Source: Xenophilus sp. E41
Lineage (GTDB): Bacteria; Pseudomonadota; Gammaproteobacteria; Burkholderiales; Burkholderiaceae_C
Direction: 5' to 3'
NCBI RefSeq assembly: GCF_003671765.1
Contig: NZ_QPIB01000007.1
Coordinates: forward strand, 441,536 to 505,535
Length of the DNA: 64,000 bases
Shown: positions 8,887-57,500 of the stretch, piece by piece
Layout: each line of letters opens with the position of its first letter
Position numbering within the stretch: the first letter of the stretch is position 1
Made by a program: the position numbers and the translations under genes
Notes under the pieces: generated by a model
Seen by the model: the letters and a program-made list of their open reading frames with translations, nothing else
Told to the model about the DNA's origin: nothing
Database searches by the model: none

Positions 8887-8949
8887 GCTATCGAATCGAT
8901 AGCTTGCAGCCAAAGCAGGACGGGCGCTGCAGCCCGATCTCTTCAAAAT
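8887..8949 (+). repeat. Dispersed Comamonadaceae-type repeat, copy 1
   Basis: The perfect palindrome GCTATCGAATCGATAGC (8887-8903) is followed 14 nt later by GGACGGGCGCTGCAGCC and a T/A-rich end. It begins 8 bp after the EgtB/SenA-like stop codon and could act as its 3' hairpin. It shares this layout with seven other copies in the window. Confidence 0.8.
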
Positions 8950-8973
8950 TGCGCTGCGGTGCCCGTGTGCGGC

Positions 8974-11418
8974 TCAGGGCTCGATCCCGCGCATCAGCGC
9001 GCGGATGCGGTGCGCCAGCTGGTCGACCGCGAAGGGCTTGCCGATCATGTGCATGCCGGGCGCAAGGAACTCGGCGCGGTTGGTCGCGTACTCCGCGTAG
9101 CCGGTCATGAACAGCACCGGCAATCCGTCGCGGTACTGGCGCGCGATCTCGGCCACCTGGCGGCCGTTGAGCCCCGGCAGCCCGACGTCGCTCACCAGCA
9201 GGTCGATGCGTGCCTGCGACTGAAGGATCGGCAGCGCCGCCTGCCCGTCGGCCGCCTCCAGCGCCTGGTAGCCCAGTTCCGAGAGCACCTCGCGCACCAG
9301 CAGGCGCACGCCCGGGTCGTCCTCCACCACCAGCACCACCTCGCCGTCGCCCTGCGGCAGCGCGGCCACCTCGCGTGCCGCCGCCGGCGCAGCGGCCTGC
9401 GGCGCATGGGGCAGGCACAGGGTCACGGTGGTGCCCTGGCCCGGCGTGCTGTCGATCTGCACCAGCCCGCGCGACTGGCGCGCGAAGCCGTAGACCATCG
9501 ACAGGCCCAGTCCCGTGCCCTGGCCGATCGGCTTGGTGGTGAAGAAGGGATCGAAGGCGCGCGCCAGCACATCGGCCGACATGCCGGTGCCGCTGTCGGC
9601 CACCGCGATGGCGAGGTAGTCGCCCGGCGGCACGCCCTCCAAGGCGCGCACTTCGGCATCGCCCAGTTGCACGTTGGCGGTGGAGATGCGCAGTTCGCCG
9701 CCGCCCGGCATGGCATCGCGCGCGTTGATGGCGAGGTTGAGGATGGCGCTCTCGAGCTGGCTCTCGTCGCCCAGCGCGTGGCGCGCATCGGGCGCCAGCT
9801 GCACCGCCAGGCGCACCTGCTCGCCGAGCGAGCGGTGCATGAGCTCTTCCATGGAGCCGATGAGCGCATTCACGTCCACCGGCTTCAGGTCCAGCGACTG
9901 GCGGCGCGAAAAGGCCAGCAGCCGCTGCACCAGTGACGCCGCGCGTTGTGCCGACTGGCTGGCGCTGTCCATGAAGCGCTCCAGGTCCGTGGTGCGTCCG
10001 GCCGCCACGCGCCGGCGCATCACCTCGATGGCGCCGGTGATGCCCTGGAGCATGTTGTTGAAGTCGTGCGCGATGCCGCCGGTGAGCTGGCCGATGGCCT
10101 CCATCTTCTGGCTGTGGCGAAGGCGCTGCTCCGATTCGCGCAGGGCGGTGACGTCGCGGCCCACCGCGTGGATCTGGCCCGAGGTGTCGGGCACGGCGGT
10201 CCAGGAGAAGCTGCGGTAGCTGCCGTCCTGGTGCCGGAAGCGGTTCTCGTAGCGCAGCAGGCGCTGGCCCTGCGCCAGCTGGCCCAGGGCATGGCGCGAG
10301 GGCTCCACGTCCTCGGGGTGCAGCAGGGCGAGCACGTCGGTGCCCACCAGGGCATCGTCGGGCCAGCCGAGCACCTGCGTCCACGCCGGGTTGACCGACA
10401 CGATCCGGCCATCCAGGCGCACCGAGATCATCAGGTCGGCCGACAGCGACCAGATGCGGTTGAGCTCGCGCGTGCGCTCCTGCACGCGCTGCTCCAGCGA
10501 GGCATTGAGCTGGGCCAGCGCCAGGCGGGCCTCGTGGCGCTCGGTCACGTCCTGCACCACGCCGCGCATCAGCAGGGGCTGGCCGTGGGCGCCGCGCACG
10601 ATCTCGGCGCGACGCCAGATCCAGCGCAACGCACCGTCGTCGGCGCGGCGGATCGGGTATTCGACGTCCAGCGGCGCCGTGCCGCGCATGCGCGATTCGC
10701 GCGTGGACACCGGGTCGCCGTCGGCGCTGTCGGTGCGCAGGCGCTGCACGTCGGCGGGCGCGTGCATCTCCTGCTCGGGCAGGCCGAACACGCGGCAGAA
10801 GCCCGGCGACGCGGTGAGCGTGTCGCGCTGGATGTCGAGCACGAACACGCCGACGCCGCCGGCCGCCTGGGCCAGTCGCCACTGCTCGTGGAGCTCGCGC
10901 AGGTGTTCCTCGCTGGCCGCCAACTGGCGCGTGGCCTTCACGCGCGAGGTGGTCTCGCTCACGATGCACAGCACGCCGCCCACGCTGCCGTCGGGCTCGC
11001 GCACGGGCGAGTAGGAGATGTCGAAGAACACCTCCTCCATGTGGCCGTGGCGATTGATCTGGAAGGGGCGGTCCTTGGCCGAGACGGTCTCGCCCAGCGT
11101 GAGCACGCGCTCGAGCAGCGGGTGCAGGTCGTCCCAGAGTTCCGTCCAGTGTTCCTGCGCCGGCCGCCCCATCGCCCCCGGGTGCTTGACGCCGATCGTC
11201 GGCGCGTAGGTGTCGTTGTAGAAGGCGACGAACTGCGGGCCCCAGAACAGCACGATCTCGGCCTGCGAGGGCAGCATCAGGTCGATGGTGGTGCGCAGCG
11301 CCGCCGACCATTGCGAGGGCGGGCCCAGCGGGGTTTCGGTATCGGACAGCGCCCGGATGCAGGCGGCCGCCTCCCCCGGCGCGTAGGGCCAGCGGTCGGG
11401 GGCGGAGGCGGCGGACAT
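8974..11418 (-). CDS. Hybrid sensor histidine kinase with PAS repeats and C-terminal receiver
   Basis: 814 aa soluble kinase with no clear membrane segment. An N-terminal PAS/GAF-like region (about 1-160) precedes two PAS/PAC segments (about 180-310 and 330-430) separated by a coiled coil near 300-320. The dimerisation/phosphoacceptor motif IAHDFNNML has its His at residue 451. The ATPase domain shows NLAINARDAMP and the glycine boxes DSGTGMS and GTGLGLSMVYG. The C-terminal receiver carries the phospho-acceptor Asp at about residue 744 in VSDVGLPG, with Lys in GKPF. No response regulator or output gene is adjacent, so the partner and signal are unknown. It faces the NTF2-like gene divergently. 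Confidence 0.93.
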   Translation of the reverse strand: MSAASAPDRWPYAPGEAAACIRALSDTETPLGPPSQWSAALRTTIDLMLPSQAEIVLFWGPQFVAFYNDTYAPTIGVKHPGAMGRPAQEHWTELWDDLHPLLERVLTLGETVSAKDRPFQINRHGHMEEVFFDISYSPVREPDGSVGGVLCIVSETTSRVKATRQLAASEEHLRELHEQWRLAQAAGGVGVFVLDIQRDTLTASPGFCRVFGLPEQEMHAPADVQRLRTDSADGDPVSTRESRMRGTAPLDVEYPIRRADDGALRWIWRRAEIVRGAHGQPLLMRGVVQDVTERHEARLALAQLNASLEQRVQERTRELNRIWSLSADLMISVRLDGRIVSVNPAWTQVLGWPDDALVGTDVLALLHPEDVEPSRHALGQLAQGQRLLRYENRFRHQDGSYRSFSWTAVPDTSGQIHAVGRDVTALRESEQRLRHSQKMEAIGQLTGGIAHDFNNMLQGITGAIEVMRRRVAAGRTTDLERFMDSASQSAQRAASLVQRLLAFSRRQSLDLKPVDVNALIGSMEELMHRSLGEQVRLAVQLAPDARHALGDESQLESAILNLAINARDAMPGGGELRISTANVQLGDAEVRALEGVPPGDYLAIAVADSGTGMSADVLARAFDPFFTTKPIGQGTGLGLSMVYGFARQSRGLVQIDSTPGQGTTVTLCLPHAPQAAAPAAAREVAALPQGDGEVVLVVEDDPGVRLLVREVLSELGYQALEAADGQAALPILQSQARIDLLVSDVGLPGLNGRQVAEIARQYRDGLPVLFMTGYAEYATNRAEFLAPGMHMIGKPFAVDQLAHRIRALMRGIEP

Positions 11419-11532
11419 GGCAGGTGGGGAAGTGCAGGCTGGGGGTGCGTTGCGCGGAGGTCGCGGCGGATTATGGGCAGCGGGCCCGCGGCCCGCGTGT
11501 CAGCGGAGCCCGCAATCGCACGGCTCGTGGTT

Positions 11533-11594
11533 GCTATCGAAACGATAGCGGTGCACGCGCCTTGGACGGGCGCTGCGGCCACTTTTTCTTTGAG
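11533..11594 (+). repeat. Dispersed repeat, copy 2
   Basis: GCTATCGAAACGATAGC (11533-11549) is followed 14 nt later by GGACGGGCGCTGCGGCC and ACTTTTTCTTT. It is intergenic, between the divergent hybrid kinase and NTF2-like genes. Confidence 0.8.
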
Positions 11595-11610
11595 GGGTGG
11601 ATGGGCCGGC

Positions 11611-11629
11611 GATGACCTGCCAGGTCATC
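11611..11629. promoter_or_regulatory. Perfect 19-bp palindrome, candidate operator
   Basis: GATGACCTG, a central C, and CAGGTCATC form an uninterrupted palindrome about 75 bp before the NTF2-like start. It lies just after repeat copy 2 in the divergent region. No T-run follows, so a protein-binding site is more likely than a terminator. Confidence 0.45.
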
Positions 11630-11703
11630 GACCGGCGGCGCCGGTGCGGCGAGCATTCCTTCACCCCGCCGCGAGCGGCCCACCCCTTCTTCAGGAGATC
11701 GCC

Positions 11704-12081
11704 ATGAACACCGCCCCCATCGCTGCCGAATCCGTCGCCCGCGACTACATCGCGCTGTGGAACGAGACCGACGCCCAGCGCCGCGCCGAACTGCTGCGTG
11801 CAGGATGGCGCGACGACGCGCATTACATCGACCCGCTCATGCAGGGCCGCGGCCACGGCCCGATCAGCGAATTGGTCGGCGCCGTGCACCAGCGCTATCC
11901 GGGCTTTCGCTTCGCGCTGCTGGGCCGCCCCGATGCGCACGGCGAACACCTGCGCTTCTCGTGGACGCTCGGGCCGGCGGGCGCCGAGGACCTGATCCAG
12001 GGCACCGACTTCGTCGAGCTCGCGGACGGCAAGCTGGCCCGCGTCACGGGCTTTCTCGACAAGGTGCCGGTCGGGGCCTGA
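11704..12081 (+). CDS. NTF2-like/SnoaL-like small protein
   Basis: 125 aa with the cone-shaped alpha/beta pattern of the NTF2 superfamily: an N-terminal helix with RDYIALWNETDAQRRAELL, the DPLMQGRGHGPISELV turn, and C-terminal strands with GTDFVELADGKLARVTGF. Members include isomerases, polyketide cyclases and many proteins of unknown function, so no reaction is assigned. The ribosome site AGGAGATCGCC precedes the ATG. It is probably a single-gene unit converging on modC. Confidence 0.85.
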   Translation: MNTAPIAAESVARDYIALWNETDAQRRAELLRAGWRDDAHYIDPLMQGRGHGPISELVGAVHQRYPGFRFALLGRPDAHGEHLRFSWTLGPAGAEDLIQGTDFVELADGKLARVTGFLDKVPVGA

Positions 12082-12087
12082 CCGCCT

Positions 12088-12750
12088 TCAGATGGTCACG
12101 ACACGGCCGGCATCGAGCCGCACGACCGACTGGGCGAGCGCCTTGACGTCCTCGGGGTCGTGCGTGACCAGCAGGGTCGGCACCTGCACGCGTTCCAGCA
12201 TCTGCGCCAGTTCGGCGCGCAGGCGGATGCGCAGCTCGGTGTCCAGCGCCGACAGGGGCTCGTCGAGCAGCAGCAGGCGCGGCGCGGTCGCCAGCGCGCG
12301 CGCCAGGGCCACGCGCTGGCGCTGGCCGCCCGACAGGTGCCGCGGGTAGGCGCGGCGCAGCGCCTGGATGTCGAACTGCGCCATGAGCGCCTCGACGCGC
12401 TCCATCGCCTCGGGCGCGGGCGAGTGCCCCAGACGCCGCACGCCGAAGCACAGGTTCTGGTGCACCGTGAGGTGCGGGAACAGCGCATAGTCCTGGAACA
12501 CGAAGCCCACGCCGCGCTCGCGGGCCGGCCGGTCGATGCCCTGCGCGCTGTCGAGCAGTGTCTGCCCATCGACGCGCACATGGCCCTGCACGCCCGGCAG
12601 CAGGCCGGCGATGGCCTGCAGCACGGTCGACTTGCCCGAGCCCGAGGCGCCCAGCAGCGCCGTGCGACGCGCGGCAGAGCGAAAGGCCGCGTCGACCGCG
12701 AAGCTGCGCTCGGGCGACTGCAAGGTGAGGCGGATGTGGACGTCGAGCAT
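12088..12750 (-). CDS. modC: Molybdate ABC transporter ATP-binding protein, short form
   Basis: 220 aa ATPase that energises molybdate uptake through ModB. The Walker A motif GASGSGKST is at 34-42, the signature LSGGQ at 139-143, Walker B LLLLDEP at 159-165, and the switch His in VTHDPEDV follows. It is about 130 residues shorter than E. coli ModC (352 aa) because the C-terminal molybdate-binding Mop domain is absent. In this cluster, Mop-type sensing is instead provided by the C-terminal half of ModE. It is the last gene of the leftward modABC unit, 6 bp after modB, and converges on the NTF2-like gene. Confidence 0.93.
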   Translation of the reverse strand: MLDVHIRLTLQSPERSFAVDAAFRSAARRTALLGASGSGKSTVLQAIAGLLPGVQGHVRVDGQTLLDSAQGIDRPARERGVGFVFQDYALFPHLTVHQNLCFGVRRLGHSPAPEAMERVEALMAQFDIQALRRAYPRHLSGGQRQRVALARALATAPRLLLLDEPLSALDTELRIRLRAELAQMLERVQVPTLLVTHDPEDVKALAQSVVRLDAGRVVTI

Positions 12751-21463: not shown

Positions 21464-22675
21464 ATGGAGCGCGTGCAGCAACTCGGCGACGCCCGGCGCG
21501 GCAAGCTGGCGGGCAACCTCGTCGGCTTTGGCCGCGCCCTGCGGCGCGCGGGCGTGCGGCTCGACGCCTCGCGCATCGCGCTCGCGGCCGAGGCGGCGCA
21601 GCTGGTGGGCGTGGGCAGCCGGCACGACCTGGCCGCGGCCATGGAATCGGTGATGGTCAGCCGCGAGCAGGACCGTGCCGTGTTCCGCGAGCTGTTCGAC
21701 GCGTGGTTCCGTGATCCCGAGCTCGCCAACAAGATGCTCGCGCAGATGCTCCCCACCGCCGAGGGCCGAGCCGAGCCGGTCAAGCGCCGCCCGCGGGTGC
21801 GCGAGGCCCTGGCTGCGCCGCGCCCGCCGCAGGCCGCGCCGCAGAACGAGCGCGAGGTCGACTTCGACGCCGCCATGACGGCCGGCGACCGGCGGCAGCT
21901 GCAGCATGCCGACTTCAACGCCCTCGGCGCGGCCGAGTACCGCCTCGTCGAACGCCTGGCGCGCGACATTCCCTTGCCGCTGCCCCGTGTGCCCAGCCGC
22001 CGCCTGCGCGTGGCGGGCCATGGCGGCGCGCAGGCCCGCATGCACTGGCCGGGCGTGTGGCACGAAGCGGCGCGCACCGGCGGCGAGATGCTGCGCCTGC
22101 CGCGGCTCGTGCGGCGCGAGCAGCCCTTGCCGCTGCTGGTGCTGGTCGACGTGTCGGGCTCGATGGAGCGTTATGCGCGCCTGCTGCTGGCCTTCCTGCA
22201 TGCGGCAACGCGCACGCTGGCCAGCCAGGGCGGGCGGCGCGACGTGTTCGCCTTCGGCACGGGCCTGACCGACCTCACGCCGGCCTTCCGTATTGCCGAC
22301 ACCGACGCGATGCTCGCGCAGGCCGGCCAGGCCATCGACGACTTCGCTGGCGGCACGCGGCTGGGCGAGTCGCTGGCCCAGCTGCGGCGCGCCCATGCGC
22401 GGCGCCTCATCGGCCGGCGCACGCTGGTGCTGCTGGTCAGCGATGGCCTGGACACCGGCGAGCCCGACGTACTGCGTGCCGAGCTGCAGTGGCTGCGCCG
22501 GCACAGCCGCTGCCTGCTGTGGCTCAACCCGCTGCTGCGCTTCTCCGGTTATGCGCCGCTGGCGCGCGGCGCGAACGAGCTGCACCGCGCGGCCGACGCG
22601 ATGCTGGCCGTGCACAACCTGCAGGCCCTGGAAGACCTGGCGCGCAGCATCGCCGCGCTGCTGCGCAACCGATAA
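21464..22675 (+). CDS. VWA-domain protein, CoxE-like
   Basis: 403 aa. The C-terminal von Willebrand A domain has the metal-binding MIDAS motif D229-V-S-G-S in LVLVDVSGSMERYARLL and later GTRLGESLAQL and VLLVSDGLDTGE. An N-terminal helical region (about 1-130) is followed by a basic, Pro-rich linker. CoxE-type proteins partner MoxR ATPases in Mo-enzyme maturation. It lies 23 bp after the MoxR gene and 26 bp before coxG. No signal peptide, so it is cytoplasmic. Confidence 0.92.
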   Translation: MERVQQLGDARRGKLAGNLVGFGRALRRAGVRLDASRIALAAEAAQLVGVGSRHDLAAAMESVMVSREQDRAVFRELFDAWFRDPELANKMLAQMLPTAEGRAEPVKRRPRVREALAAPRPPQAAPQNEREVDFDAAMTAGDRRQLQHADFNALGAAEYRLVERLARDIPLPLPRVPSRRLRVAGHGGAQARMHWPGVWHEAARTGGEMLRLPRLVRREQPLPLLVLVDVSGSMERYARLLLAFLHAATRTLASQGGRRDVFAFGTGLTDLTPAFRIADTDAMLAQAGQAIDDFAGGTRLGESLAQLRRAHARRLIGRRTLVLLVSDGLDTGEPDVLRAELQWLRRHSRCLLWLNPLLRFSGYAPLARGANELHRAADAMLAVHNLQALEDLARSIAALLRNR

Positions 22676-22701
22676 CGACACACTCCACGAAGGAACACCC
22701 C

Positions 22702-23283
22702 ATGGACATGCAAGGCACCCGCCAGCTCGGCGTCACCCAGGAACAGGCCTGGGAAGCCCTCAACGACCCGGAGACGCTCAAGGGCTGCCTGCCGGGCTGC
22801 GACAAGTTCGAGTCGACCGGCGACAACCAGTACGCCGTGACGATGGCCGTGAAGGTCGGCCCGGTGTCGGCCAAGTTCAACGGCAAGGTGACGCTCAGCG
22901 ACATCCAGCCGCCGGCGAGCTACAAGCTGGCCTTCGAGGGGCAGGGCGGCGTGGCCGGCTTCGGCAAGGGCGCGTCGGCGGTCTCGCTCACGCCCAACGA
23001 CGCGGGCTGCGAGCTGGCCTACACGGTGCAGGCGCAGGTGGGCGGCAAGATCGCGCAACTGGGCCAGCGCCTGATCGACGGCGCGGCCAAGTCGATGGCC
23101 GACGATTTCTTCAAGCGCTTCGACGCCGAGATGCAGCGCCGCCATGGCCCACCGCCGGCCGAGGCCGCTGCTATCGAAACGGGAGCGCCTGCCGCAGAGA
23201 AGACGGGCGCCGTGGCCGGATTCATGCAGAAACTCGGCTTCGGCAAGAAGGACAGGCCCGAGGGCGCGCAGGACGAGGGCTGA
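22702..23283 (+). CDS. coxG: CoxG-family (SRPBCC) protein
   Basis: 193 aa. Residues about 1-145 form a START/SRPBCC fold with the family features WEALNDPETLKGCLPGCDKFE and GKVTLSDIQPPASYKLAFEGQGG. CoxG proteins bind quinone or help attach the Mo enzyme to the membrane; this role is proposed, not settled. The C-terminal tail (about 150-193) is Ala-rich then basic with no membrane helix, unlike longer CoxG proteins. Residues about 157-173 of this tail are encoded by dispersed repeat copy 3. It is followed 5 bp later by xdhC. Confidence 0.92.
   Translation: MDMQGTRQLGVTQEQAWEALNDPETLKGCLPGCDKFESTGDNQYAVTMAVKVGPVSAKFNGKVTLSDIQPPASYKLAFEGQGGVAGFGKGASAVSLTPNDAGCELAYTVQAQVGGKIAQLGQRLIDGAAKSMADDFFKRFDAEMQRRHGPPPAEAAAIETGAPAAEKTGAVAGFMQKLGFGKKDRPEGAQDEG
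23170..23223 (+). repeat. Dispersed repeat, copy 3, inside coxG
   Basis: GCTATCGAAACGGGAGC is followed by GACGGGCGCCGTGGCC and GGATTCATG, matching the other copies in order and spacing, with the second palindrome arm degraded. It is read in frame as AAIETGAPAAEKTGAVAGFM in the CoxG tail. Confidence 0.6.
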
Positions 23284-25514: not shown

Positions 25515-25644
25515 GGCAGAGTCAGGCGTAGAAGTTACAAGACGTTAACGAACTACGCGCTGCACTGCAACATAAGGCAAAGGTACCTACCGCCGGGTAG
25601 GAGCCGCCGAGGCGCGGCTGCGAGCCACGCGCCTCGGCTAGACG

Positions 25645-25708
25645 AATTCGAAGCAAAAGTGCCAGAAATGCCCGCTACGCGGGCGCCGTCAGCTATCGAT
25701 TCGATAGC
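25645..25708 (-). repeat. Dispersed repeat, copy 4, supplying the mnhG stop codon
   Basis: In the leftward direction it reads GCTATCGAATCGATAGC, then GACGGCGCCCGCG...GGGCATTTCTGGCACTTTTGCTTCG, like the other copies. The palindrome encodes the last residues LSNR of MnhG and provides the TAG stop, so the repeat has defined the end of this protein. Confidence 0.75.
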
Positions 25709-26091
25709 GCTTCGGGTTCCTCGCTCGCCGCCTGGGGTGGGCGTTGCGGGCCGTGGGCGGGCGGCGGCACGTCGCCTCCCTTCTGTCGCTCGCGGAACAG
25801 GGCCGCGCGCATCAGGAAGATGGTGGTGACCGGCGCCGTGAGCGCGACGAAGAAGGCGATCAGCACCGCATGCAGGAAGAGCTGGAAGCCCTGGACCGAG
25901 AAGTACACGATCGTCGCCAGCGAGATCGCCCACACGCCCAGCGTCGCCCCCAGCGTGGGGGCGTGGATGCGGCTGAAGAAGGTCGGCAGGCGCACCAGGC
26001 CGAAGGAGCCGATCGCCGCGAAGGCGGCACCCACCAGCACCAGCAGGGCCGTGAGCCACTCGGCCCACCAGGGCATCGACCCGCCGCTCAC
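25693..26091 (-). CDS. mnhG: Mrp Na+/H+ antiporter subunit G
   Basis: 132 aa with three membrane helices (WLTALLVLVGAAFAAIGSFGL; TLGVWAISLATIVYF; FLHAVLIAFFVALTAPVT). The conserved VRLPTFFSRIHAPTLGATLG is characteristic of MnhG/PhaG/MrpG. The polar tail of about 30 residues is longer than in many homologs, and its last codons and stop come from dispersed repeat copy 4. It is the last gene of a six-gene operon. The subunit is needed for assembly of the heteromeric Mrp antiporter. Confidence 0.93.
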   Translation of the reverse strand: MSGGSMPWWAEWLTALLVLVGAAFAAIGSFGLVRLPTFFSRIHAPTLGATLGVWAISLATIVYFSVQGFQLFLHAVLIAFFVALTAPVTTIFLMRAALFRERQKGGDVPPPAHGPQRPPQAASEEPEALSNR

Positions 26092-28685: not shown

Positions 28686-29033
28686 TCATGTTTCTTCGCG
28701 CTCCTCACCATCGACGTGGTCGGTGTCGGAGATGCCGCGCGAGGCCAGCATCACGACGAGGAAGAGCGCGGTCATGGCGAAGCCGATCACGATGGCCGTG
28801 AGCACCAGGGCCTGCGGCATCGGGTCGGCCGTGTTGGCCAGCGTGGCCTTGAAGCCGGGCACCAGCACCGGCTCGCTGTCGACCTTGAGCCGGCCCATGC
28901 TGAAGATGAAGAGATTGACCGCATAGGCGATCAGCGTCAGGCCCATGATGACCTGGAAGGTCCGCGGACGCAGCAGCAGGTACACGCCAGAGCCCGTGAG
29001 CACGCCGATGGCGATGGCCAGCACGATTTCCAT
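28686..29033 (-). CDS. mnhC: Mrp Na+/H+ antiporter subunit C (NuoK-like)
   Basis: 115 aa with three helices (VLAIAIGVLTGSGVYLLL; FQVIMGLTLIAYAVNLFIFSMG; ALVLTAIVIGFAMTALFLVVML), homologous to NuoK of complex I. Its ATG overlaps the mnhA stop as TGATG, which implies coupled translation. A 100-bp gap containing a dispersed repeat separates it from mnhD. Confidence 0.95.
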   Translation of the reverse strand: MEIVLAIAIGVLTGSGVYLLLRPRTFQVIMGLTLIAYAVNLFIFSMGRLKVDSEPVLVPGFKATLANTADPMPQALVLTAIVIGFAMTALFLVVMLASRGISDTDHVDGEEREET

Positions 29034-32002
29034 CAGGCGGTGCCTCCGACGACGGCGCCGCCGCCTTCTTCGGCCGCACGTCGCTCGGCGTCCTTTTGCG
29101 CGGCCTTCTCGGCCTGCTCGTCGGCCCAGCGGTGGCTGCGGATGGACTGGTGGGCCAGCGCGGTGAGGATCAGCATGGTGGCGCCGAGCACCAGCGCGAA
29201 CACGCCGGTGTCGAAGAACAGGGCGCTGGGCACGTGCAGCTCGCCCAGCACCGGCAGCGTGAGGTGGGCGGTGTGCGTGGTCAGGAAGGGGAAGCCCAGG
29301 GCCACGGCGCCGCCGCCGGTGGCCAGCGCCAGCAGCAGACCGATGGCGATCCAGCGGCGCGGGTAGATGCGCAGGTGCTCTTCCGTCCAGGCCGCGCCCG
29401 AGACGATGAACTGCAGCATCAGCGCGACCGACATCACGAGGCCCGCCACGAAGCCGCCGCCGGGCGCGTTGTGGCCGCGCATGAAGAAGTACACCGACAC
29501 CAGCGCCGACAGCGGCAGCAGCAGGCGCACCAGCACCGCCGGAACCATCAGGTAGCCGACCGCGGTGTCCTTGGCCAGGCGCGGGTTGACGAGGTCGCTG
29601 CTGCCGTCGTCGGGCTGCACGCGCTGCTGGGGCGGCAGCGCCATGGCTTCGGGGGCGGGGCGGAAGCGCCGCAGCAGCGCGTAGACGGTCAGGGCCACGA
29701 TGCCCAGCACCGTGATCTCGCCGAAGGTGTCGAAGCCGCGGAAGTCCACCAGCATCACGTTGACGACGTTGGTGCCGCCGCCTTCGGGCAGCGCGCGCTC
29801 GAGGAAGAAAGGCGAGATGCTCAGCGGGTTGGGCCGCGTCATCATGAACCAGGCGAGGGCCGACATGCCGCCGCCGGCCACCGCGGCTACAGCCAGATCG
29901 CGCCCGCGGCGGCCCCAGGGGCGCAGGCGCTCGCGCGGCCGCTGGATTTGCGCCTTGCGCATCGGCAGCCAGCGCAGGCCCAGCAGGATGAGCAGCGTAG
30001 TGACGACCTCGACCACCAGCTGGGTGAGCGCGAGGTCGGGGGCAGAGAACCAGATGTAGGTGATGCAGCTCACCAGGCCCGCGCCCGAGGCCAGCATGAG
30101 CGAGGCCAGGCGATGGAACTTGGCCTGCCACGCCGCCGCGAGTGCGCAGATGCAGCCGATGACCCAGGTCATCGCGAACATGGGCGAGAAGGGCAGCAGC
30201 TCGCGCGTGCCGCGCTCGGCCGGCACGAACCACAGCGAGCTGCCCGCGCCCAGCACGGCCACGAGCACGAGCAGAAAGAGCTGCGGCTGCAGGCGACGCG
30301 TGCCGAGCAGCCTGCGGCTGCGGCGGCCCGCTTCGGACAGGCGGGCCAGGACGTTCTCGAAGATGCGCTGCCCGTCGAAGCGGTGCAGCAGCGGCGTGTG
30401 CTCCAGCCCGCCGGCCTGCCGACGGCGCCGCTGCAGCAGGTAGAGCGCCGCGCCGCCGGCCAGGGCGACGAAGCTCATCACCAGCGGCAGATTGAAGCCG
30501 TGCCACACCGCCAGGCTGTATTCGGGCAGCGTGCCGCCCACTACCGGCGCGGCCGCGGCCGCGAGGAAGGCGCCAACCGACCACGCCGGCACCACGCCGA
30601 CCACCAGGCACACCAGCACCAGGAGTTCCACCGGTACGCGCATCCAGTGGGGCGGCTCATGGGGCGGCTTGGGCACCTCGTTGTTGCAGGGCGGGCCGAA
30701 GAACACGTCGAACACGAAGCGCGCCGAGTACGCGACGCTGAAGGCGCCCGCGAGCGTGGCCAGAACGGGCAGCGTGTACTCGACCCAGGGCGCCGCATCG
30801 AGGAACACCGTCTCGGCGAAGAACATCTCCTTGGACAGGAAGCCGTTGAGCAGCGGCACGCCCGCCATCGACGCGCTGGCGATGATGGCCAGCGTGCCGG
30901 TGATGGGCATGGCGCGCAGCAGGCCGCTCAGCTTGCGGATGTCGCGCGTGCCGGTCTCGTGGTCGATGATGCCCGCCGCCATGAACAGCGAGGCCTTGAA
31001 GGTCGCGTGGTTCATGATGTGGAAGACCGCGGCCACGGCCGCCAGCGGGCTGTTCATGCCGAGCAGCAGCGTGATGAGCCCCAGGTGCGAGATAGTGGAG
31101 TAGGCCAGCAGCGCCTTCAGGTCGCGCTGGAACATCGCCACGTAGCCGCCCAGCAGCAGGGTGAGCGCTCCCGCGCCGCCGACCAGCCAGAACCATTCCT
31201 GCGTGCCCGAGAGCGCCGGCCACAGCCGCGCCATCAGGAACACGCCCAGCTTCACCATCGTGGCCGAATGCAGGTAGGCCGAGACGGGCGTGGGCGCGGC
31301 CATGGCGCGCGGCAGCCAGAAGTGGAAGGGAAACTGCGCGCTCTTGGTGAAGGCGCCCAGAAGGATCAGCACCAGGGCCAGCGGGTACAGCGCATGGGCG
31401 CGGATCCGGTCGCCCGAGGCGAGGACGACGTCGAGGTCGTAGCTGCCCACGATCCGGCCCAGCACCAGCACGCCGGCCAGCAGGCACAGCCCGCCGGCAC
31501 CGGTGACGGTGAGCGCCATGCGCGCACCGCGCCGCGCATCGCGCCGGTGGTGCCAGTAGCCGATCAGCAGGAAGGAGAACAGGCTGGTGAGCTCCCAGAA
31601 CAGCACCATCTGGATCAGGTTGCCCGATAGCACCACGCCGACCATCGAGCCCATGAAGGCCAGGAAGAAGGCGAAGAAGCGCGGCACCGGATCGGACGCC
31701 GACATGTAGTAGCGCGCGTAGAGCACCACCAGCGTGCCGATGCCCAGGACCAGCATGCAGAACAGCCAGGCGAAGCCGTCCATGCGGAAGGACAGGTCGA
31801 GGCCCAGCGAGGGGATCCACTCGTAGGTCTGGCGCAGGACGTTGCCATCGGCCAGGCGCGGGAACATCCACGCCACCTGCACCGCGCCGAACAGCGCCAC
31901 CACGCCGGCCAGCGTCGATTCCCGGTTGCGGGCGTCGGACGGCAGCGACGCCGCCAGCACGCTGGCAATGAAGGGGAGTGCGACGAGAAGGACCAGGGGC
32001 AT
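29033..32002 (-). CDS. mnhA: Mrp Na+/H+ antiporter fused subunit A/B
   Basis: 989 aa. Residues about 1-770 are MnhA, homologous to NuoL, with the conserved LLGAFTKSAQFPFHFWLPRAMAAPTPVSAYLHSATMVKLGVFL and the histidine-bearing HIMNHATFKASLFMAAG. Residues about 820-960 correspond to MnhB (SVYFFMRGHNAPGGGFVAGLVMSVALML is the MnhB signature), so the two subunits are fused, as in PhaAB-type systems. The Mrp complex exchanges Na+ for H+ to control internal pH and sodium. It is first in the leftward operon A/B-C-D-E-F-G. Confidence 0.95.
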   Translation of the reverse strand: MPLVLLVALPFIASVLAASLPSDARNRESTLAGVVALFGAVQVAWMFPRLADGNVLRQTYEWIPSLGLDLSFRMDGFAWLFCMLVLGIGTLVVLYARYYMSASDPVPRFFAFFLAFMGSMVGVVLSGNLIQMVLFWELTSLFSFLLIGYWHHRRDARRGARMALTVTGAGGLCLLAGVLVLGRIVGSYDLDVVLASGDRIRAHALYPLALVLILLGAFTKSAQFPFHFWLPRAMAAPTPVSAYLHSATMVKLGVFLMARLWPALSGTQEWFWLVGGAGALTLLLGGYVAMFQRDLKALLAYSTISHLGLITLLLGMNSPLAAVAAVFHIMNHATFKASLFMAAGIIDHETGTRDIRKLSGLLRAMPITGTLAIIASASMAGVPLLNGFLSKEMFFAETVFLDAAPWVEYTLPVLATLAGAFSVAYSARFVFDVFFGPPCNNEVPKPPHEPPHWMRVPVELLVLVCLVVGVVPAWSVGAFLAAAAAPVVGGTLPEYSLAVWHGFNLPLVMSFVALAGGAALYLLQRRRRQAGGLEHTPLLHRFDGQRIFENVLARLSEAGRRSRRLLGTRRLQPQLFLLVLVAVLGAGSSLWFVPAERGTRELLPFSPMFAMTWVIGCICALAAAWQAKFHRLASLMLASGAGLVSCITYIWFSAPDLALTQLVVEVVTTLLILLGLRWLPMRKAQIQRPRERLRPWGRRGRDLAVAAVAGGGMSALAWFMMTRPNPLSISPFFLERALPEGGGTNVVNVMLVDFRGFDTFGEITVLGIVALTVYALLRRFRPAPEAMALPPQQRVQPDDGSSDLVNPRLAKDTAVGYLMVPAVLVRLLLPLSALVSVYFFMRGHNAPGGGFVAGLVMSVALMLQFIVSGAAWTEEHLRIYPRRWIAIGLLLALATGGGAVALGFPFLTTHTAHLTLPVLGELHVPSALFFDTGVFALVLGATMLILTALAHQSIRSHRWADEQAEKAAQKDAERRAAEEGGGAVVGGTA

Positions 32003-32149: not shown

Positions 32150-32536
32150 TCACGAGGCGACGAACCAATGCACCGTGCGAATCCCGACCCACGTCAGCGC
32201 CAGCGAGCCCGCCAGGTGCAGGCAGCCGGTCAGCAGCGCGAGCCCCAGCCGGCCGTCGAGCAGCATCGCCACCACCTCGGCCGAGAAGCTCGAGAAGGTC
32301 GTGAGGCCGCCGAGGAAGCCGGTGATGAGCAGCAGCCGCCACACCGGGTCGAGCTGCGGCATGGCCTGGAAGGTGCCGACGGCCACGCCGATCAGGTAGC
32401 CGCCGATGAGGTTGGCGGCCAGCGTGCCCCAGGGCAGTAGGCCGCCTTGCGTGTTGAGTGCGAGGCCGAGGCCCCAGCGGGCGAGCGCCCCGAGCGAGGC
32501 GCCGAGCGAGATGGCCAATACGGGCAGCAGGGGCAT
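32150..32536 (-). CDS. crcB: Fluoride channel CrcB/Fluc
   Basis: 128 aa with four helices. GASLGALARWGLG at the N-terminus, GTLAANLIGGYLIGV with the conserved Asn, and GFLGGLTTFSSFSAEVV with the TTFS(S/T)F motif are diagnostic of Fluc channels, which work as antiparallel dimers to expel fluoride. No fluoride riboswitch is recognisable in the 36-bp gap upstream, so any control would come from further up, perhaps the TRAP operon. Confidence 0.95.
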   Translation of the reverse strand: MPLLPVLAISLGASLGALARWGLGLALNTQGGLLPWGTLAANLIGGYLIGVAVGTFQAMPQLDPVWRLLLITGFLGGLTTFSSFSAEVVAMLLDGRLGLALLTGCLHLAGSLALTWVGIRTVHWFVAS

Positions 32537-39777: not shown

Positions 39778-41799
39778 TCAGCGGGCGTCGAAAGGCTGCA
39801 CCTGCCGCCACCAGGCCAGGACCTGATCCACCGATTGCTCGATGCTCTGGTCGGAGTTGTCCAGGAGGCGGGCGTCTTCGGCGGGCTTGAGCGGCGCGAC
39901 GCTGCGGGACGAATCCCTCGCATCACGCGCCTCCAGGTCGGCGCGAAGACTGTCGAGTGTAACCGAAATTCCCTTTGAAATCAACTGCTTATGCCGGCGC
40001 TCGGCGCGGTGCGCGGCGCTGGCCGTGAGGTAGACCTTCAGGGAGGCGTCGGGGAAGATGACGGTGCCCATGTCACGTCCGTCCGCCACCAGGCCGGGCA
40101 ACTGGCGGAAGGACAGTTGCAGCTCGCGCAGGGCCTCGCGCACGGCCGGAAGCGCCGACACGCGGGACGCGTCCATGCCCGCGGCTTCGGTGCGGATCGC
40201 CTCGGTGATGTCCTCGCCGGCCAGCAGCACTTGGCCGGCGTCGAAGCGCAGGGCCAGGCCGCGGGCGAGTTCGGCGATCCGGGCCTCATGGGCCGCATCG
40301 GCTTCCAAGCCCGCGCGCCGCATGACCAGGCCTGCGACCCGGTACAGGGCGCCCGAGTCGAGGTAGTGGTAGCCGAGCCGACGTGCGATCTCGGCCGCGA
40401 GCGTGCCCTTGCCCGAGGCAGTCGGGCCGTCCACGCAGATGACGGGCACCTCGGCCGGTTGGACCACGGAGAACAGCGCTTCGAAATAGTCCGGGAAGGT
40501 CTTGCCGACGCACTTCGGGTCGAGGATGCGCACCGGCAGCCGGTCCGGATTGAAGGCCGCGAGCGAGAAACACATGGCGACCCGGTGGTCGTCGTAGGTG
40601 TGGATGCTGGCACGCCGCCAGTGGCCGGGCGGCAGCGGGTCGATGCGGATGAAGTCCGGTCCGGCCTCGACCGTGGCGCCGAGCTTGCGCAGTTCGGCCG
40701 CCATGGCGTCGATACGGTCGGTCTCCTTCACGCGCCAGCTGGCGATGTTGCGCAGCGTGCTGGGACCGTCGGCGTACAGCGCCATCACGGCCAGCGTCAT
40801 CGCGGCGTCGGGGATGTGGTTGGCGTCGATGTCGATGGCGCGCAGCGGCCAGGCCCCACGCTCGATCTGCAGCCAGTTGGGACCGCTGCTGACCTGCGCG
40901 CCCATTTGCCGCGCGGCCTCGACGAAGCGGATGTCGCCCTGGATGGAGTCGGCGCCGACGCCTTCGATCTTCAAGCCATCTTGGCCCGCAGCGCCCGCTG
41001 CGATTGCGCCAAGCGCTATGAAATAGCTGGCAGAGGAGGCATCCGCCTCGACATGGATGTCGCCCGGTGACCGGTACTGTGCACCAGCTGGGATGACGAA
41101 GCGCGACCAGCCGTCGCGCTGGACGTCGATGCCGAATCGCGCGAGCAGGTTGAGCGTGATCTCGATGTAGGGCTTGGAGATCAGTTCGCCGATCACGTCG
41201 ATGGTGATGGCGCGCGAAGCCGCCGCCAGGGGAAGAGCGAGCAGCAGCGCCGTGAGGAACTGGCTCGAGACGTCGCCGCGTACGCGGATCGGCGCGTCCA
41301 GCTGCAGCGCCGAAGCGGCGACGGGTCGGATGCGCAGCGGCGGATAGCCGGGGTTGCCGAGGTACTCGACCTGGCAACCCAGTTGCACCAGCGCGTCGAC
41401 CAGATCGCCGATCGGACGCTCGTGCATGCGCGGCACGCCGCGCAGCTCGAAGTCGCCGCCCAGCAGGGCGAGTGCCGCGGTGAGCGGCCGCATGGCCGTG
41501 CCGGCGTTGCCGAGGAAGAGCGACAGGGCGCGCTGGCGGACGTCATCGCCCAGGCGGCCGCCGAGTCCCTGAATACGCAGCACGCCCCCGTCTCGGTGCA
41601 GGCCGCAGCCGAGCGTCGCCAGCGCATCGAGCATCACGCGCGTGTCGTCCGAGTCGAGCAGGTCGTGGACGGTAGTGGTGCCGTGCGCCAGGGCGGCCAG
41701 CAGCAGCACCCGGTTGGAGATGCTCTTGGAACCCGGCAGGCGGACCGTGCCGCCGGCCGCCACCAGCGGCGGGACGTCGAGAAAAGCGGTGGCGTACAT
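39778..41799 (-). CDS. aroA: Fused EPSP synthase/cytidylate kinase (AroA-Cmk)
   Basis: 673 aa bifunctional protein. Residues 1-447 are AroA, which makes 5-enolpyruvylshikimate 3-phosphate; [10 protein letters not shown] (21-30), [10 protein letters not shown] (96-105) and KETDRI (359-364) are the signatures. Residues 451-673 are Cmk, which phosphorylates CMP/dCMP; its P-loop is GPTASGKGT (458-466), with [12 protein letters not shown] following. In E. coli these are separate genes. Residues about 258-276 are encoded by dispersed repeat copy 6 and make this stretch about five residues longer than in E. coli AroA. The start at MYATAFLDV is 3 bp before the tyrA stop region, within one leftward operon. 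Confidence 0.96.
40969..41027 (-). repeat. Dispersed repeat, copy 6, inside aroA
   Basis: Leftward it reads GCTATTTCATAGC, then GCGGGCGCTGCGGGCC and GGCTTGAAG, the same order as the intergenic copies. It is read in frame as [19 protein letters not shown] within the EPSP synthase domain. Confidence 0.65.
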
Positions 41800-54675: not shown

Positions 54676-54743
54676 GCCGCGTTCTCCCCAGCGGCCGTGC
54701 CCTGGTGGCACGGCCGCTTTTTCTTCCAGCCATCGGCGAGGCC

Positions 54744-55481
54744 ATGCAACTCCAGGATCTTCTCTACAGCCAGGGCTTCGGCACGCGCCGCGTCTGCGCG
54801 GGCCTCGTTCAACAGGGCTTCGTGGCCGTGGACGCCGTGGATGCGCCGGAGCCAGCGACGGAACTGATGGCAGCCGACGGCCTGCGCTTCACCGTGCAGG
54901 GCACGCCGTGGGAATACCACGCCAAGGCCTACCTGATGCTGCACAAGCCGGCCGGCACCGAGTGTTCGCAGAAGCCTTCGGCCTGGCCCAGCATCTACAC
55001 CCTGCTGCCTGCGCCGCTGCGCCAGCGGCCGGTCAAGGGCGGCCAGCCGGGCGTACAGGCCATCGGCCGGCTGGACCAGGACACGACCGGCCTGCTGCTG
55101 CTCAGCGACGACGGCCAGTTCATCCACCGCATGGCGTCGCCCAAGCACCATGTGCCCAAGGTCTACGAGGCGACGACCGCCGACGCCCTGACCGACGCGC
55201 AGATCCAGCGCCTGCTGGCCGGCGTGGTGCTCGACGACGATCCGAAGCCCGTGCGTGCGGCCGCGGCCGAGGCGGTGGCCACCCACCACCTGCGACTCAC
55301 GCTCACCGAGGGCAAATACCACCAGGTCAAGCGCATGGTCGCCGCCGTGGGCAACCGGGTGACGGCGCTGCACCGCAGTGCCATCGGCGGCCTGGTGCTG
55401 CCGGCCGACCTGGCGCCGGGCCAGTGGCGCTGGCTTCGACCCGACGAGCTTCAGGCGGTGCGGCAGTCGGGGTCCGCCTGA
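54744..55481 (+). CDS. rsuA: 16S rRNA pseudouridine synthase, RsuA family
   Basis: 245 aa. The N-terminal S4-like RNA-binding segment (about 1-55) is followed by the synthase domain with the catalytic Asp D111 in AIGRLDQDTTGLLLLSDDG, and KVYEAT, GKYHQVKRMVAAVGNRVTALHR, which are RsuA/RluB/E/F-family motifs. RsuA modifies U516 of 16S rRNA; a RluE-type 23S activity is an alternative because the subfamilies differ subtly. It is 68 bp after ggt. Confidence 0.9.
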   Translation: MQLQDLLYSQGFGTRRVCAGLVQQGFVAVDAVDAPEPATELMAADGLRFTVQGTPWEYHAKAYLMLHKPAGTECSQKPSAWPSIYTLLPAPLRQRPVKGGQPGVQAIGRLDQDTTGLLLLSDDGQFIHRMASPKHHVPKVYEATTADALTDAQIQRLLAGVVLDDDPKPVRAAAAEAVATHHLRLTLTEGKYHQVKRMVAAVGNRVTALHRSAIGGLVLPADLAPGQWRWLRPDELQAVRQSGSA

Positions 55482-55584
55482 CGCGCGGTTCGCGCCTGCC
55501 GGCCCGTCGTCGCGGCGGTCTTTCCTGTCGGCCGCGCGGCAGCCTCGCTCGTTAAACTTTCCAGTCCCTTTCCGGAGCCGTGTC

Positions 55585-56598
55585 TTGCGCCTGTCCGTTC
55601 GCTCCCTGAGCCGCCTTGCGGCTCTTTTCGTTTGTCTGCTGGCCTGCGCGGCCGCACCGGCCCAACCGGCCGCTCCCGCGACAGCGTCGGCCCCGCCACT
55701 GTTCGTGCTCAATTCGCTCGACGCCTCGGTCAGCCTGATCGATCCCGCCACCTGGACCGAACGCAACCGCGTCGCGGTGGGCAAGGAGCCGCACCACATC
55801 TACATGACGCCGGACCAGAAGTCGGTGATCGTGGCCAACTCGGCCGGCGATTCGCTGACCTTCTTCAACCCGCGCACGGGCGAGGTCCAGCGCACGGTCT
55901 ACGGCATCATCGATCCGTACCAGCTGCAGTTCTCGCCCGACATGAAGTGGTTCATCACGGCCGGCAACCGGCTGAACCACGTCGACGTCTACCGCTGGGA
56001 CGGCAGCAACCTGCAGTTGGCCAAGCGCATCCCGACCGGCAAGACGCCCAGCCACATCTGGATCGACGGCAAGAGCACGGTGGCCTACGTCACGATGCAG
56101 GACAGCGACGAGCTGATCGCCGTCGACCTGGCGACCCAGACCATCCGCTGGCGCACGCCCACCGGGCCGATGCCGGCCGACGTCTTCGGCATCCACGACG
56201 GCAAGACGCTGCTGGTCGGCCTGACCGGCGGCGACGGCGTGCAGGTCTTCGATGTGGCGGGCAAGGAGCCCAAGCTGGTCGGCAAGATCCCGACCGGCAA
56301 GGGCGCGCACGCCTTCCGTTCGGCGGGCGACGGCAAGTCGGTGTTCGTCAGCAACCGCGTCGCCAACTCCATCAGCCGCATCGACATCGCCACGCTCACC
56401 GTGGCTGCCACCTACCCCGTGCCCGGCGGCCCCGACTGCATGGACGTCTCGGCCGACGGCAAGACGCTCTTCGTCACCTCGCGCTGGGCCAAGAAGCTCA
56501 GCGTGGTCGACCTCGCGGCGGGCAAGGTGGTGCGCACCGTGAACGTGGGCCGCTCGCCCCACGGTGTGTGGACGGTCGAACATGCCCGGGTCCGCTGA
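55585..56598 (+). CDS. YncE/YVTN-family beta-propeller exported protein
   Basis: 337 aa with a signal peptide LRLSVRSLSRLAALFVCLLACAAAPAQ. The mature protein has about seven repeats of the YVTN type (for example PHHIYMTPDQKSVIVANSAGDSLTFFNPRTGEVQR and GPDCMDVSADGKTLFVTSRWAKKLSVVDLAAGKVVRTVNVGRSPHGVWT). Such proteins bind DNA, metals or substrates in the periplasm, and the role is uncertain. No ATG is suitable; a TTG at 55585 preceded by CCGGAG gives a full signal peptide. It overlaps the next gene by 17 bp, suggesting coupling. Confidence 0.88.
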   Translation: MRLSVRSLSRLAALFVCLLACAAAPAQPAAPATASAPPLFVLNSLDASVSLIDPATWTERNRVAVGKEPHHIYMTPDQKSVIVANSAGDSLTFFNPRTGEVQRTVYGIIDPYQLQFSPDMKWFITAGNRLNHVDVYRWDGSNLQLAKRIPTGKTPSHIWIDGKSTVAYVTMQDSDELIAVDLATQTIRWRTPTGPMPADVFGIHDGKTLLVGLTGGDGVQVFDVAGKEPKLVGKIPTGKGAHAFRSAGDGKSVFVSNRVANSISRIDIATLTVAATYPVPGGPDCMDVSADGKTLFVTSRWAKKLSVVDLAAGKVVRTVNVGRSPHGVWTVEHARVR

Positions 56599-57412
56599 AT
56601 TCCGGCCCGTCGGCGCGCTGCGCCAGGCCGCCGCGGTTGCTACCTTTTTCATAGCGGCCTGCGCAGCATCGGCGGGCGCTGCAGCCCAGAATGACTGCGA
56701 CAAGCCGGTCTACCTGACCTTCGACACCGGCCACATGGGCATCGCGCCGCTGGTGGCCGAGGTGCTCAGGCGCCAGGACGTGAAGGTCACCTTCTTCGCC
56801 GCCGCCGAGAAGACGCAGGACGGCGGCGACAGCCTCGACAACCGCTGGGCGCCCTGGTGGAAGGCCCGCGCGGCCGAGGGGCACGAGTTCGCTTCGCACA
56901 CCTACGACCATGCGTACTGGCGGGGCGACGTGAAGGGCGTGGAACCGAAATTCCGGATCCAGCCCAGCGCCGGCGCGTATGCGGGACGCACCTTCACCTG
57001 GGACGCGGCGCAGTACTGCCAGGAGATCCAGCGCTCGACCGACCGGCTGGCGCACATCACCGGCAAGAAGCCGCTGCCGCTCTTTCGCGCGCCGGGCGGC
57101 AAGACCTCGCCGCGCCTGCTGGCAGCCGCCAAGAGCTGCGGCTTCGCCCATGTCGGCTGGTCGCCCGCCGGCTTCCTGGGCGACGAGCTGCCGAGCGACA
57201 AGTACCCCAACGACAAGCTGCTGGCGCAGGCGCTGGAGCACATCCGGCCCGGCGACATCCTGCTGGCGCACCTGGGCATCTGGTCGCGCCAGGACCCGTG
57301 GGCGCCGGCCGACCTGGAGCCGCTGATCGTCGGCTTGAAGGCCAAGGGCTTCTGCTTCCGCACGCTGCGCCAGCATCCGGCGTACCGCGAGTGGATTGCC
57401 GCACACCCATGA
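56582..57412 (+). CDS. Exported polysaccharide deacetylase (NodB-like)
   Basis: 276 aa. Family carbohydrate-esterase-4 features are motif 1 VYLTFDTGHMG (46-51, usually TFDDGP), motif 2 EFASHTYDHAYW with the HX3H metal site, and motif 3 FRAPGGKTS. The second motif-1 Asp that normally binds metal is Thr here, so the metal site is altered. The signal peptide core AVATFFIAACAASAGAAAQ (residues 19-36) is encoded by dispersed repeat copy 7. It probably acts on peptidoglycan or another exopolysaccharide, but deacetylase activity is not proven. It overlaps the propeller gene by 17 bp. Confidence 0.88.
   Translation: MPGSAEFRPVGALRQAAAVATFFIAACAASAGAAAQNDCDKPVYLTFDTGHMGIAPLVAEVLRRQDVKVTFFAAAEKTQDGGDSLDNRWAPWWKARAAEGHEFASHTYDHAYWRGDVKGVEPKFRIQPSAGAYAGRTFTWDAAQYCQEIQRSTDRLAHITGKKPLPLFRAPGGKTSPRLLAAAKSCGFAHVGWSPAGFLGDELPSDKYPNDKLLAQALEHIRPGDILLAHLGIWSRQDPWAPADLEPLIVGLKAKGFCFRTLRQHPAYREWIAAHP
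56639..56692 (+). repeat. Dispersed repeat, copy 7, forming the signal peptide of the deacetylase
   Basis: GCTACCTTTTTCATAGC is followed by GGCGGGCGCTGCAGCC, matching the other copies in order and spacing. It encodes residues about 20-37 of the deacetylase, the hydrophobic core and cleavage region of its signal peptide. Confidence 0.65.
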
Positions 57413-57436
57413 AAGCACGCAGTCAGGTCGCCGGGG

Positions 57437-57500
57437 TTACTATGAAATCGATAGCTGCTTGCGCGCGTCCGCCGGACGCTGCAGCCACTTTTGATTCATG
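57437..57500 (+). repeat. Dispersed repeat, copy 8
   Basis: ACTATGAAATCGATAGC is followed by TGCTTGCGCGCG, GGACGCTGCAGCC, ACTTTTGATTCATGAAA, the same layout as the other copies. It lies between the deacetylase and the sterol-desaturase-like gene and supplies the ATG at 57498 of a 22-codon reading frame. Confidence 0.75.

What the first reader, a model, noticed from the sequence alone, without database searches (positions are those of the whole stretch)
8887..57500. Short dispersed repeat family used as protein-coding and stop-codon material
Eight copies share the layout GCTAT-N-ATAGC, a 12-15 nt spacer, GGRCGGGCGCTGCNGCC and an ACTTTT...TTCA end: 8887, 11533, 23170, 25645, 32071, 40969, 56639 and 57437. 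Five are wholly or mainly intergenic, but three lie inside genes (coxG, aroA, the deacetylase) and one ends mnhG. Similar repeats are known in Comamonadaceae in my recollection; their entry into coding sequence is the notable part. It suggests a mobile, non-autonomous element that inserts in frame and is then used by proteins.
Basis: partly seen in the sequence, partly recalled or inferred. Interest (0 to 1): 0.75.

Follow-up and report, generated by a model that had tools for sequence, protein, structure and literature searches.

The report
Gene-invading palindromic repeat in Comamonadaceae
A short hairpin-forming DNA repeat, present in probably hundreds of copies in this bacterium, mostly sits just after gene ends but in places has become part of proteins, as palindromic elements of Rickettsia are known to do.

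Summary
The repeat family is real: its 17-bp core (up to 1 mismatch) hits 70/67 times genome-wide against 0 for the reversed pattern. The three coding ones (deacetylase, aroA, coxG) are weak (29.8, 25.9, 20.4) but above the window's noise (10.7), and none of 400 synonymous recodings of each reaches its score. In 1.07 Mb, 90 copies reach 25 bits: most lie after stop codons, 24 of 90 hold a gene's stop codon, 11 of 90 lie inside genes. In gluQ a whole copy is an in-frame insertion of 17-19 residues against six congeners. In aroA, folA and coxG little or no length change is seen, so clean insertion is not shown there. Copies are mostly shared in place by sister species; present mobility is unproven. 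In relative G008 they erode, also at synonymous sites. Precedents: Rickettsia palindromic elements, and BRE, whose sequence I could not compare. A new variant of a known kind; a 3'-gene-end role is likely but inferred, the means of spread unknown.

The parts
8883..8953 (+). repeat copy between the converging FGE-sulfatase-domain gene (ends 8879) and histidine kinase gene (8974-11418, -)
   Evidence: 61.6 bits; shared by G002, G012, G013, eroded in G008
11529..11599 (+). repeat copy upstream of the kinase gene, divergent gap
   Evidence: 62.8 bits; shared by G002, G012, G013; about 94 bp absent at this place in G008
25642..25712 (-). repeat copy whose palindrome supplies the TAG stop codon of mnhG
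   Evidence: 68.1 bits; codons; shared by G002, G012, G013; G008 keeps CGA TAG in an eroded copy
25693..26076 (-). mnhG, ends inside the copy
   Evidence: PF03334, 72.5 bits
32065..32135 (-). repeat copy between a crcB-like gene (32150-32536, -) and the Mrp antiporter gene (29033-32002, -)
   Evidence: 56.5 bits; shared in place by G002, G012, G013 and, more eroded, G008
57435..57505 (+). repeat copy between the deacetylase gene and the fatty-acid hydroxylase-domain gene
   Evidence: 62.5 bits; present in L059, L060, L062, eroded in Xenophilus aerolatus L061, not seen in X. azovorans L063 or Variovorax loci L064-L077
56635..56705 (+). weak coding copy over the signal peptide of the deacetylase (ATFFIAACAASAGAAA)
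   Evidence: 29.8 bits; 0 of 400 recodings as high
56582..57412 (+). polysaccharide deacetylase gene (start codon read from the sequence by eye)
   Evidence: PF01522 for the ORF 56564-57412
40965..41031 (-). weak coding copy in aroA ([21 protein letters not shown])
   Evidence: 25.9 bits; 0 of 400 recodings as high; orthologs
39778..41799 (-). aroA (EPSP synthase) in one reading frame with cytidylate kinase
   Evidence: PF00275 and PF02224
23166..23236 (+). weakest coding copy, C-terminal linker of CoxG; only the palindrome half is element-like, the second half is ancestral
   Evidence: 20.4 bits; 0 of 400 recodings as high; orthologs
22702..23283 (+). coxG
   Evidence: PF06240 for the ORF 22057-23283; start from the script

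Best explanation
The copies belong to one old family of short palindromic repeats of the Comamonadaceae: hairpin 1 is a 17-nt palindrome (GCTATCG-N3-CGATAGC here), hairpin 2 a GC-rich stem-loop, then a GGCC-ATTT-GCTT-like tail. Shown: the family, both hairpins (compensatory changes between genera), the clustering just after stop codons, the presence inside genes, one whole-copy in-frame insertion (gluQ). Inferred: it spread in the past by a copy-and-insert process whose enzyme is unknown, and copies survive where they do least harm: after stop codons, between converging genes and, in genes, at loops, termini, linkers and signal peptides. It is tolerated in genes because, by reading of the consensus, four of its six frames are open and give Ala/Gly-rich peptides (mostly A-I/M/T-x-x-I/V-A); the third frame in either direction carries TAG and ends the gene. 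Most likely role of the copies at gene ends: hairpins that protect or delimit transcript ends from either side (inferred, untested). Coding copies are by-products, some later adapted by the protein.
For: Family and hairpins. After stops: of 49 copies in tandem gaps 38 lie nearer the stop, median 16 nt after it against 77 nt before the next start (Wilcoxon 4e-6); 20 of 151 convergent, 49 of 656 tandem, 8 of 150 divergent gaps hold a copy. In genes: nine copies of 28.3-53.7 bits with at least 95% of their length in a gene, against single best values of 10.5-25.2 in eight synonymous recodings. Insertion: gluQ. Coding copies also in other genera: dapE of Acidovorax sp. Leaf191, comEC of Comamonas suwonensis, a DNA polymerase III alpha-like gene of G022. 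Stop codons: 24 of 90 copies; TAG 8 of 24 against 97 of 961 genes.
Against: No mobiliser, no clear target duplication, few empty sites. aroA, folA and coxG show little or no length change, and the one copy-bearing gap comparable with copy-poor G004 is not longer than there. No compensatory changes beyond shuffles within the genus sample. No orientation preference (26 sense, 23 antisense). Placement after stops is also what mere tolerance would give, so the 3'-end role is not demonstrated. Canonical terminators are rarer beside copies (5 of 74 against 40 of 359) but the numbers are small and I did not test them.
Confidence: 0.55

Rival explanations
1. A functional site made or kept in place: the element is a DNA-binding site or RNA structure selected at gene ends and maintained by selection, not a former mobile element; coding copies are sites selected inside genes.
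For: Position shared between sister species, element more conserved than non-coding flank in G013, G002 and G012 (0.826/0.793, 0.776/0.747, 0.806/0.723; 7, 6 and 5 sites); hairpins covary between genera; folA and aroA copies without length change in congeners; fewer synonymous differences in coding copies among carriers (62/510 against 1375/7686, pairs not independent).
Against: gluQ copy is a gain of 17-19 residues; three candidate empty sites; the family is absent or nearly so from close relatives G001 and G004, odd for an essential site; GluQ and the deacetylase show no synonymous deficit among carriers.
Confidence: 0.2
2. A REP-type element moved by the genome's Y1 tyrosine transposase-like gene (RAYT).
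For: One PF01797 gene in G000 with a 25.3-bit copy just downstream, also in G002 at 22.8 bits.
Against: A copy on one side only, none found upstream, none above 6.2 bits at the seven other loci examined; the gene is found in 28 of 31 genomes, including copy-free G001, G014, G018, G020, and not found in Xylophilus ampelinus with 142 copies; no GTAG-type head in the consensus.
Confidence: 0.07
3. Overwriting: element DNA is copied onto partly similar existing sequence (gene conversion or annealing of element-derived single strands), so that coding sequence is rewritten without change of length.
For: folA copy of 30.7 bits with no length change over the copy in 12 orthologs; MobA-like gene and aroA likewise against G004; aroA copy overlies the conserved ASYF motif.
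Against: gluQ and dapE show length gain; old insertion followed by trimming, or ancestral similarity as in coxG, could give the same picture.
Confidence: 0.12
4. Chance matches in GC-rich DNA.
For: coxG is half ancestral; 4 of 15 coding copies did not beat all recodings in the fixed-window test.
Against: Reversed DNA at most 9.0 bits; recoded genes at most 25.2, against nine real coding copies of 28.3-53.7 bits; 0 reversed-pattern hits genome-wide.
Confidence: 0.03

Closest known systems
Rickettsia palindromic elements (RPE)
   Same: Dispersed palindromic repeats, part of them in frame inside unrelated genes, coding a recurrent peptide (passages in PMC10969869 and PMC3733652; Ogata and colleagues not held)
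   Different: About 66-71 bp here against about 150 bp reported; 11 of 90 in genes here against nearly half reported; different bacteria; sequence relation not tested
BRE, Beta-proteobacterial repeat element (Hot et al. 2011, PMC3110155)
   Same: Short repeats, mostly intergenic, reported in several Comamonadaceae, some wholly within coding sequences (section 14 read)
   Different: 75-91 bp, often in tandem, GC above intergenic DNA in Bordetella; here about 66-71 bp, and in C11:1-400000 plus the window no two copies closer than about 0.75 kb; 0 hits in Bordetella trematum, a species not in their table. BRE sequences are in a supplement I could not open, so identity is undecided
REP/REPIN with RAYT transposase
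   Same: High-copy palindromes near gene ends with compensatory changes
   Different: No GT(A/G)G head, no pair of inverted copies flanking the Y1 transposase-like gene
MITEs
   Same: Short, non-coding, dispersed, sometimes intragenic (PMC10969869 passages)
   Different: No target duplication seen at the empty sites looked at; inverted repeats are internal hairpins

Membership tests
Rickettsia palindromic elements (as a kind) | palindromic repeat inserted in frame in coding genes | tested here: met
   gluQ +17-19 residues; nine strong coding copies; not shown for the window's own coding copies
Rickettsia palindromic elements (as a kind) | recurrent peptide in a preferred frame | tested here: met
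   10 of 14 coding copies in one frame, P = 0.004 against one third
Rickettsia palindromic elements (as a kind) | sequence homology to an RPE family | not tested
   no RPE sequence was fetched
BRE | sequence homology to Bordetella BRE | not testable with these tools
   sequences only in a supplement; no supplement look-ups allowed; main text holds none
BRE | tandem arrays at many loci | tested here: not met
   closest copies about 0.75 kb apart in C11:1-400000 and the window
BRE | presence in Bordetella | tested here: inconclusive
   0 hits in B. trematum only, which their table does not list
REP with RAYT | transposase gene flanked by two inverted copies | tested here: not met
   one copy, downstream only, in G000 and G002; none at seven other loci
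REP with RAYT | GT(A/G)G head before the palindrome | tested here: not met
   consensus before hairpin 1 is NNTT
REP with RAYT | copy number follows presence of the transposase | tested here: not met
   gene in copy-free G001, G014, G018, G020; not found in X. ampelinus with 142 copies (draft genomes)
MITE | target-site duplication | tested here: inconclusive
   three candidate empty sites, none with a clear duplication; a 6-nt overlap at window 11530 is imperfect
Intrinsic terminator | GC-rich stem followed directly by a T-run | tested here: not met
   in the consensus the T-run begins about ten positions after hairpin 2; terminator scan small and untested: 5 of 74 with a copy, 40 of 359 without

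The most novel reading that the evidence does not exclude
Element DNA is actively maintained even inside core genes (ndh, folA, aroA): four sister species keep its rare codons, while a fifth, G008, has lost the maintenance genome-wide and lets copies erode in and out of genes; and in some genes the element was written over existing coding sequence rather than inserted. This implies an unknown trans-acting factor and a copying process that edits coding DNA without changing its length.
Probability: 0.15. Interest if true: 0.85.

Novelty: new variant of a known kind. Interest (0 to 1): 0.58.

Why it matters
In the papers I could see, in-frame protein-coding palindromes are chiefly a Rickettsia story. 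A free-living bacterial family with the same habit, probably hundreds of copies in some genomes and none in close relatives, makes it testable how such repeats spread, why lineages keep or lose them, and how they turn into protein (loops, C-termini, a signal peptide). It also bears on gene start and stop annotation in Comamonadaceae.

Tried and rejected
Third hairpin in the tail: not supported by covariation. Compensatory changes inside the genus sample: none beyond shuffles; they appear between genera. RAYT as mobiliser. Gap lengths as a test of insertion: against G008 the median difference is 0.5 nt for 10 usable gaps with a copy, since G008 holds eroded copies of like length; only one copy-bearing gap was comparable with copy-poor G004, and it is 6 nt shorter in G000, a result against simple insertion there. 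Recoding test: 4 of 15 coding copies (C11:206983, C11:212271, C11:383906, C22:347750) did not exceed all 400 recodings; they are partial or near a gene end and the fixed 57-column window does not fit them. A first scoring of aroA and NDH-2 orthologs used position windows that missed loci on the minus strand; redone. Literature: eight searches brought up only the BRE paper as a possible description; this covers the held library alone. Coordinates printed for C22 and C32b are local: add 100,000 and 60,000.
Full report
WHAT IS THERE. The window lies in a 5.84 Mb genome (G000). For one window gene the closest named loci are 97% identical at protein level (Comamonadaceae bacterium ALPHA2B; isolate A87_bin36_2), then Xenophilus aerolatus 94% (the genome itself may be left out there). 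The palindrome GCTATCGAWWCGATAGC with up to one mismatch hits 70 times forward and 67 times reverse (a perfect palindrome counts on both strands), the pattern read backwards 0 times. From 20 copies I built a 71-position model; it returned 150 genome hits, the number the tool scores, all with E below 5e-8. In 1.07 Mb of the genome 90 copies reach 25 nhmmer bits, about 490 per genome by extrapolation (inference). Reversed DNA gives at most 9.0 bits.

THE EIGHT COPIES. Five are strong; the three coding ones score 29.8 (deacetylase), 25.9 (aroA) and 20.4 (coxG), against 10.7 for the best hit not tied to any of the eight. None of 400 synonymous recodings of each coding stretch reaches its score. 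Rare codons cluster in the copies: ATA is 0.3% of isoleucine codons and occurs in the aroA copy and the deacetylase copy (read).

ANATOMY. Hairpin 1 (7-bp arms), hairpin 2 (7-bp arms, GC-rich here), then a tail. In other genera hairpin 1 reads, for example, GCTATTG...CAATAGC or GCTATTC...GAATAGC. In 43 copies from several genera, aligned by MAFFT without the structure, 51 cells have both sides changed against 17.2 (sd 6.2) in shuffles, 0 of 500 shuffles as high; the covariation score is 0.260 against at most 0.102 for slid pairings. The rows were picked by a model that holds this structure, which leans towards pairing. Within the genus sample there is no such signal.

WHERE IT SITS. Genes were called by a codon-usage script of my own, so the counts depend on it. 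Of 90 copies: 49 in tandem gaps (26 sense, 23 antisense), 20 convergent, 8 divergent, 11 inside genes, 2 partial or at an edge. 20 of 151 convergent, 49 of 656 tandem and 8 of 150 divergent gaps hold a copy (convergent against divergent P = 0.028). In tandem gaps the copy lies a median 16 nt after the stop and 77 nt before the next start; 38 of 49 are nearer the stop (Wilcoxon 4e-6). 24 of 90 copies contain a gene's stop codon; 8 of these 24 are TAG, against 97 of 961 genes (P = 0.0015). 'Stop-codon material' therefore holds in the genome sample.

IN GENES. Nine coding copies score 28.3 to 53.7 bits with at least 95% of their length in a gene; in eight recodings of all genes the single best values were 10.5 to 25.2, some of them at the same protein-coded copies. 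Pfam places coding copies in NDH-2, DHFR, a LytS-type kinase C-terminus, a KDPG-type aldolase C-terminus, a MobA-like transferase, a Glu-Q-tRNA-synthetase-like protein, a methyltransferase N-terminus, an Ada/AlkA protein C-terminus, an oxidoreductase (POR, DUF6537), and in UvrD between the helicase C-terminal and tudor domains. In 10 of 14 copies of at least 18 bits the palindrome reads in one frame (P = 0.004). gluQ: G000, G002, G012, G013 and G008 carry 17-19 residues that G001, G003, G004, G005, G006 and G009 of the genus lack, as do G014 and G030; the extra DNA is a copy: 42.4 bits in G000, 38-43 in G002, G012, G013, 12.3 in G008, at most 1.4 in the eight others. NDH-2: 47.5-49.8 bits in four genomes, 7.0 in G008, at most 1.3 in 15 others; +6 residues against a solved NDH-2, 9mqy. 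A model (mean pLDDT 82) has strands 254-259 and 270-274 with a poorly predicted turn between them, over the copy at 255-276. aroA: 16-24 bits in G000, G002, G012, G013, 20.9 (33.9 with a cross-genus model) in G023, 11.3 in G017, at most 9.5 in 24 others; same length in eight of nine congeners without the codons, +5 residues against 3nvs. folA: no length change over the copy in 12 orthologs; G017 and G023 have two more residues just beyond it. Other genera: dapE of Acidovorax sp. Leaf191 (8 extra residues at the copy against 4o23), comEC of Comamonas suwonensis inside the Competence domain, and a DNA polymerase III alpha-like gene of G022 between PHP and polymerase domains (ten of 50 loci from a long-frame scan were sent, five gave no such support: four no domain, one a domain beside a doubtful frame).

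HISTORY. Model hits (150 candidates scored per genome, so counts are lower bounds): 9 of 22 genomes (9 of 13 of the family, 0 of 9 of other families of the order) and 10 of 13, where three genomes seem to repeat earlier handles. Counts: at least 150 (G002, ALPHA2B), 142 Xylophilus ampelinus, 141 G023, 131 G017, 111 Acidovorax Leaf191, 102 X. aerolatus and G008, 98 G022, 78 G016, 63 G015, 57 Comamonas suwonensis, 10 G019, 7 X. azovorans, 6 Variovorax boronicumulans, 5 Paracidovorax konjaci, 3 and 1 in two Delftia, 2 G004, and 0 in G001, G014, G018, G020, Limnohabitans T6-20, Variovorax J22R187, Bordetella trematum. Of the 64 copies in C11:1-400000 and C32:318001-587000, 34 places are spanned by G008 DNA and 3 are candidate empty sites, without a clear target duplication; loss in G008 is possible. 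At length-preserved non-coding sites, identity of element and flank is 0.826/0.793 (G013, 7 sites), 0.776/0.747 (G002, 6), 0.806/0.723 (G012, 5), but 0.734/0.764 and 0.718/0.781 in G008 (10 and 14). In five genes with coding copies, synonymous differences are 62/510 in the copies against 1375/7686 elsewhere among carriers, and 80/228 against 746/4126 between carriers and G008. Pairs share branches, so the P values printed there overstate the case; NDH-2 carries much of it, GluQ shows no deficit among carriers and the deacetylase the reverse. As G008 shares the gluQ and NDH-2 lengths, I read this as ancestral copies eroding in G008; whether selection or copying maintains them elsewhere is open.

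WHAT IT WORKS LIKE. By habit it is like a Rickettsia palindromic element that also settles at 3' gene ends as REP sequences do. It fails three tests for RAYT-moved REPs. Whether it is BRE cannot be decided here. Papers: PMC3110155, section 14 and passages; PMC3733652, PMC10969869 and PMC2817692, passages only; Ogata and colleagues not held and known through those passages and recall.

Noticed in passing
L027:2514-6915 (G000:C11:162514-166915): Three ABC-transporter genes (solute-binding protein, permease, ATPase) lie between two copies in opposite orientation; the whole stretch is absent at this place in G008, as if an island had entered or left at the copies.
   Followed up: partly
L018 (G000:C32:153635-153961): Y1 transposase-like gene, single match in 28 of 31 genomes searched, with one repeat copy just downstream in G000 and G002.
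   Followed up: partly
L244:1501-1600 and L261:1501-1600: In G017 and G023 (two genera) a copy ends directly before the same gene start (ATGAA-AT-CTCATCCAGAACGGCCGCGTCAT), suggesting a place kept across genera (by eye).
   Followed up: no
window 39778-41799 (-): EPSP synthase and cytidylate kinase are fused in one reading frame; the whole length matches in 24 of 40 relatives' genomes as one stretch from near residue 1 to 660 or beyond, and as two separate stretches in others (counted by eye).
   Followed up: no
L307:1278-2525 (+), Acidovorax sp. Leaf191: dapE carries a copy in the loop just before the FAGHTDVVPTG motif.
   Followed up: partly
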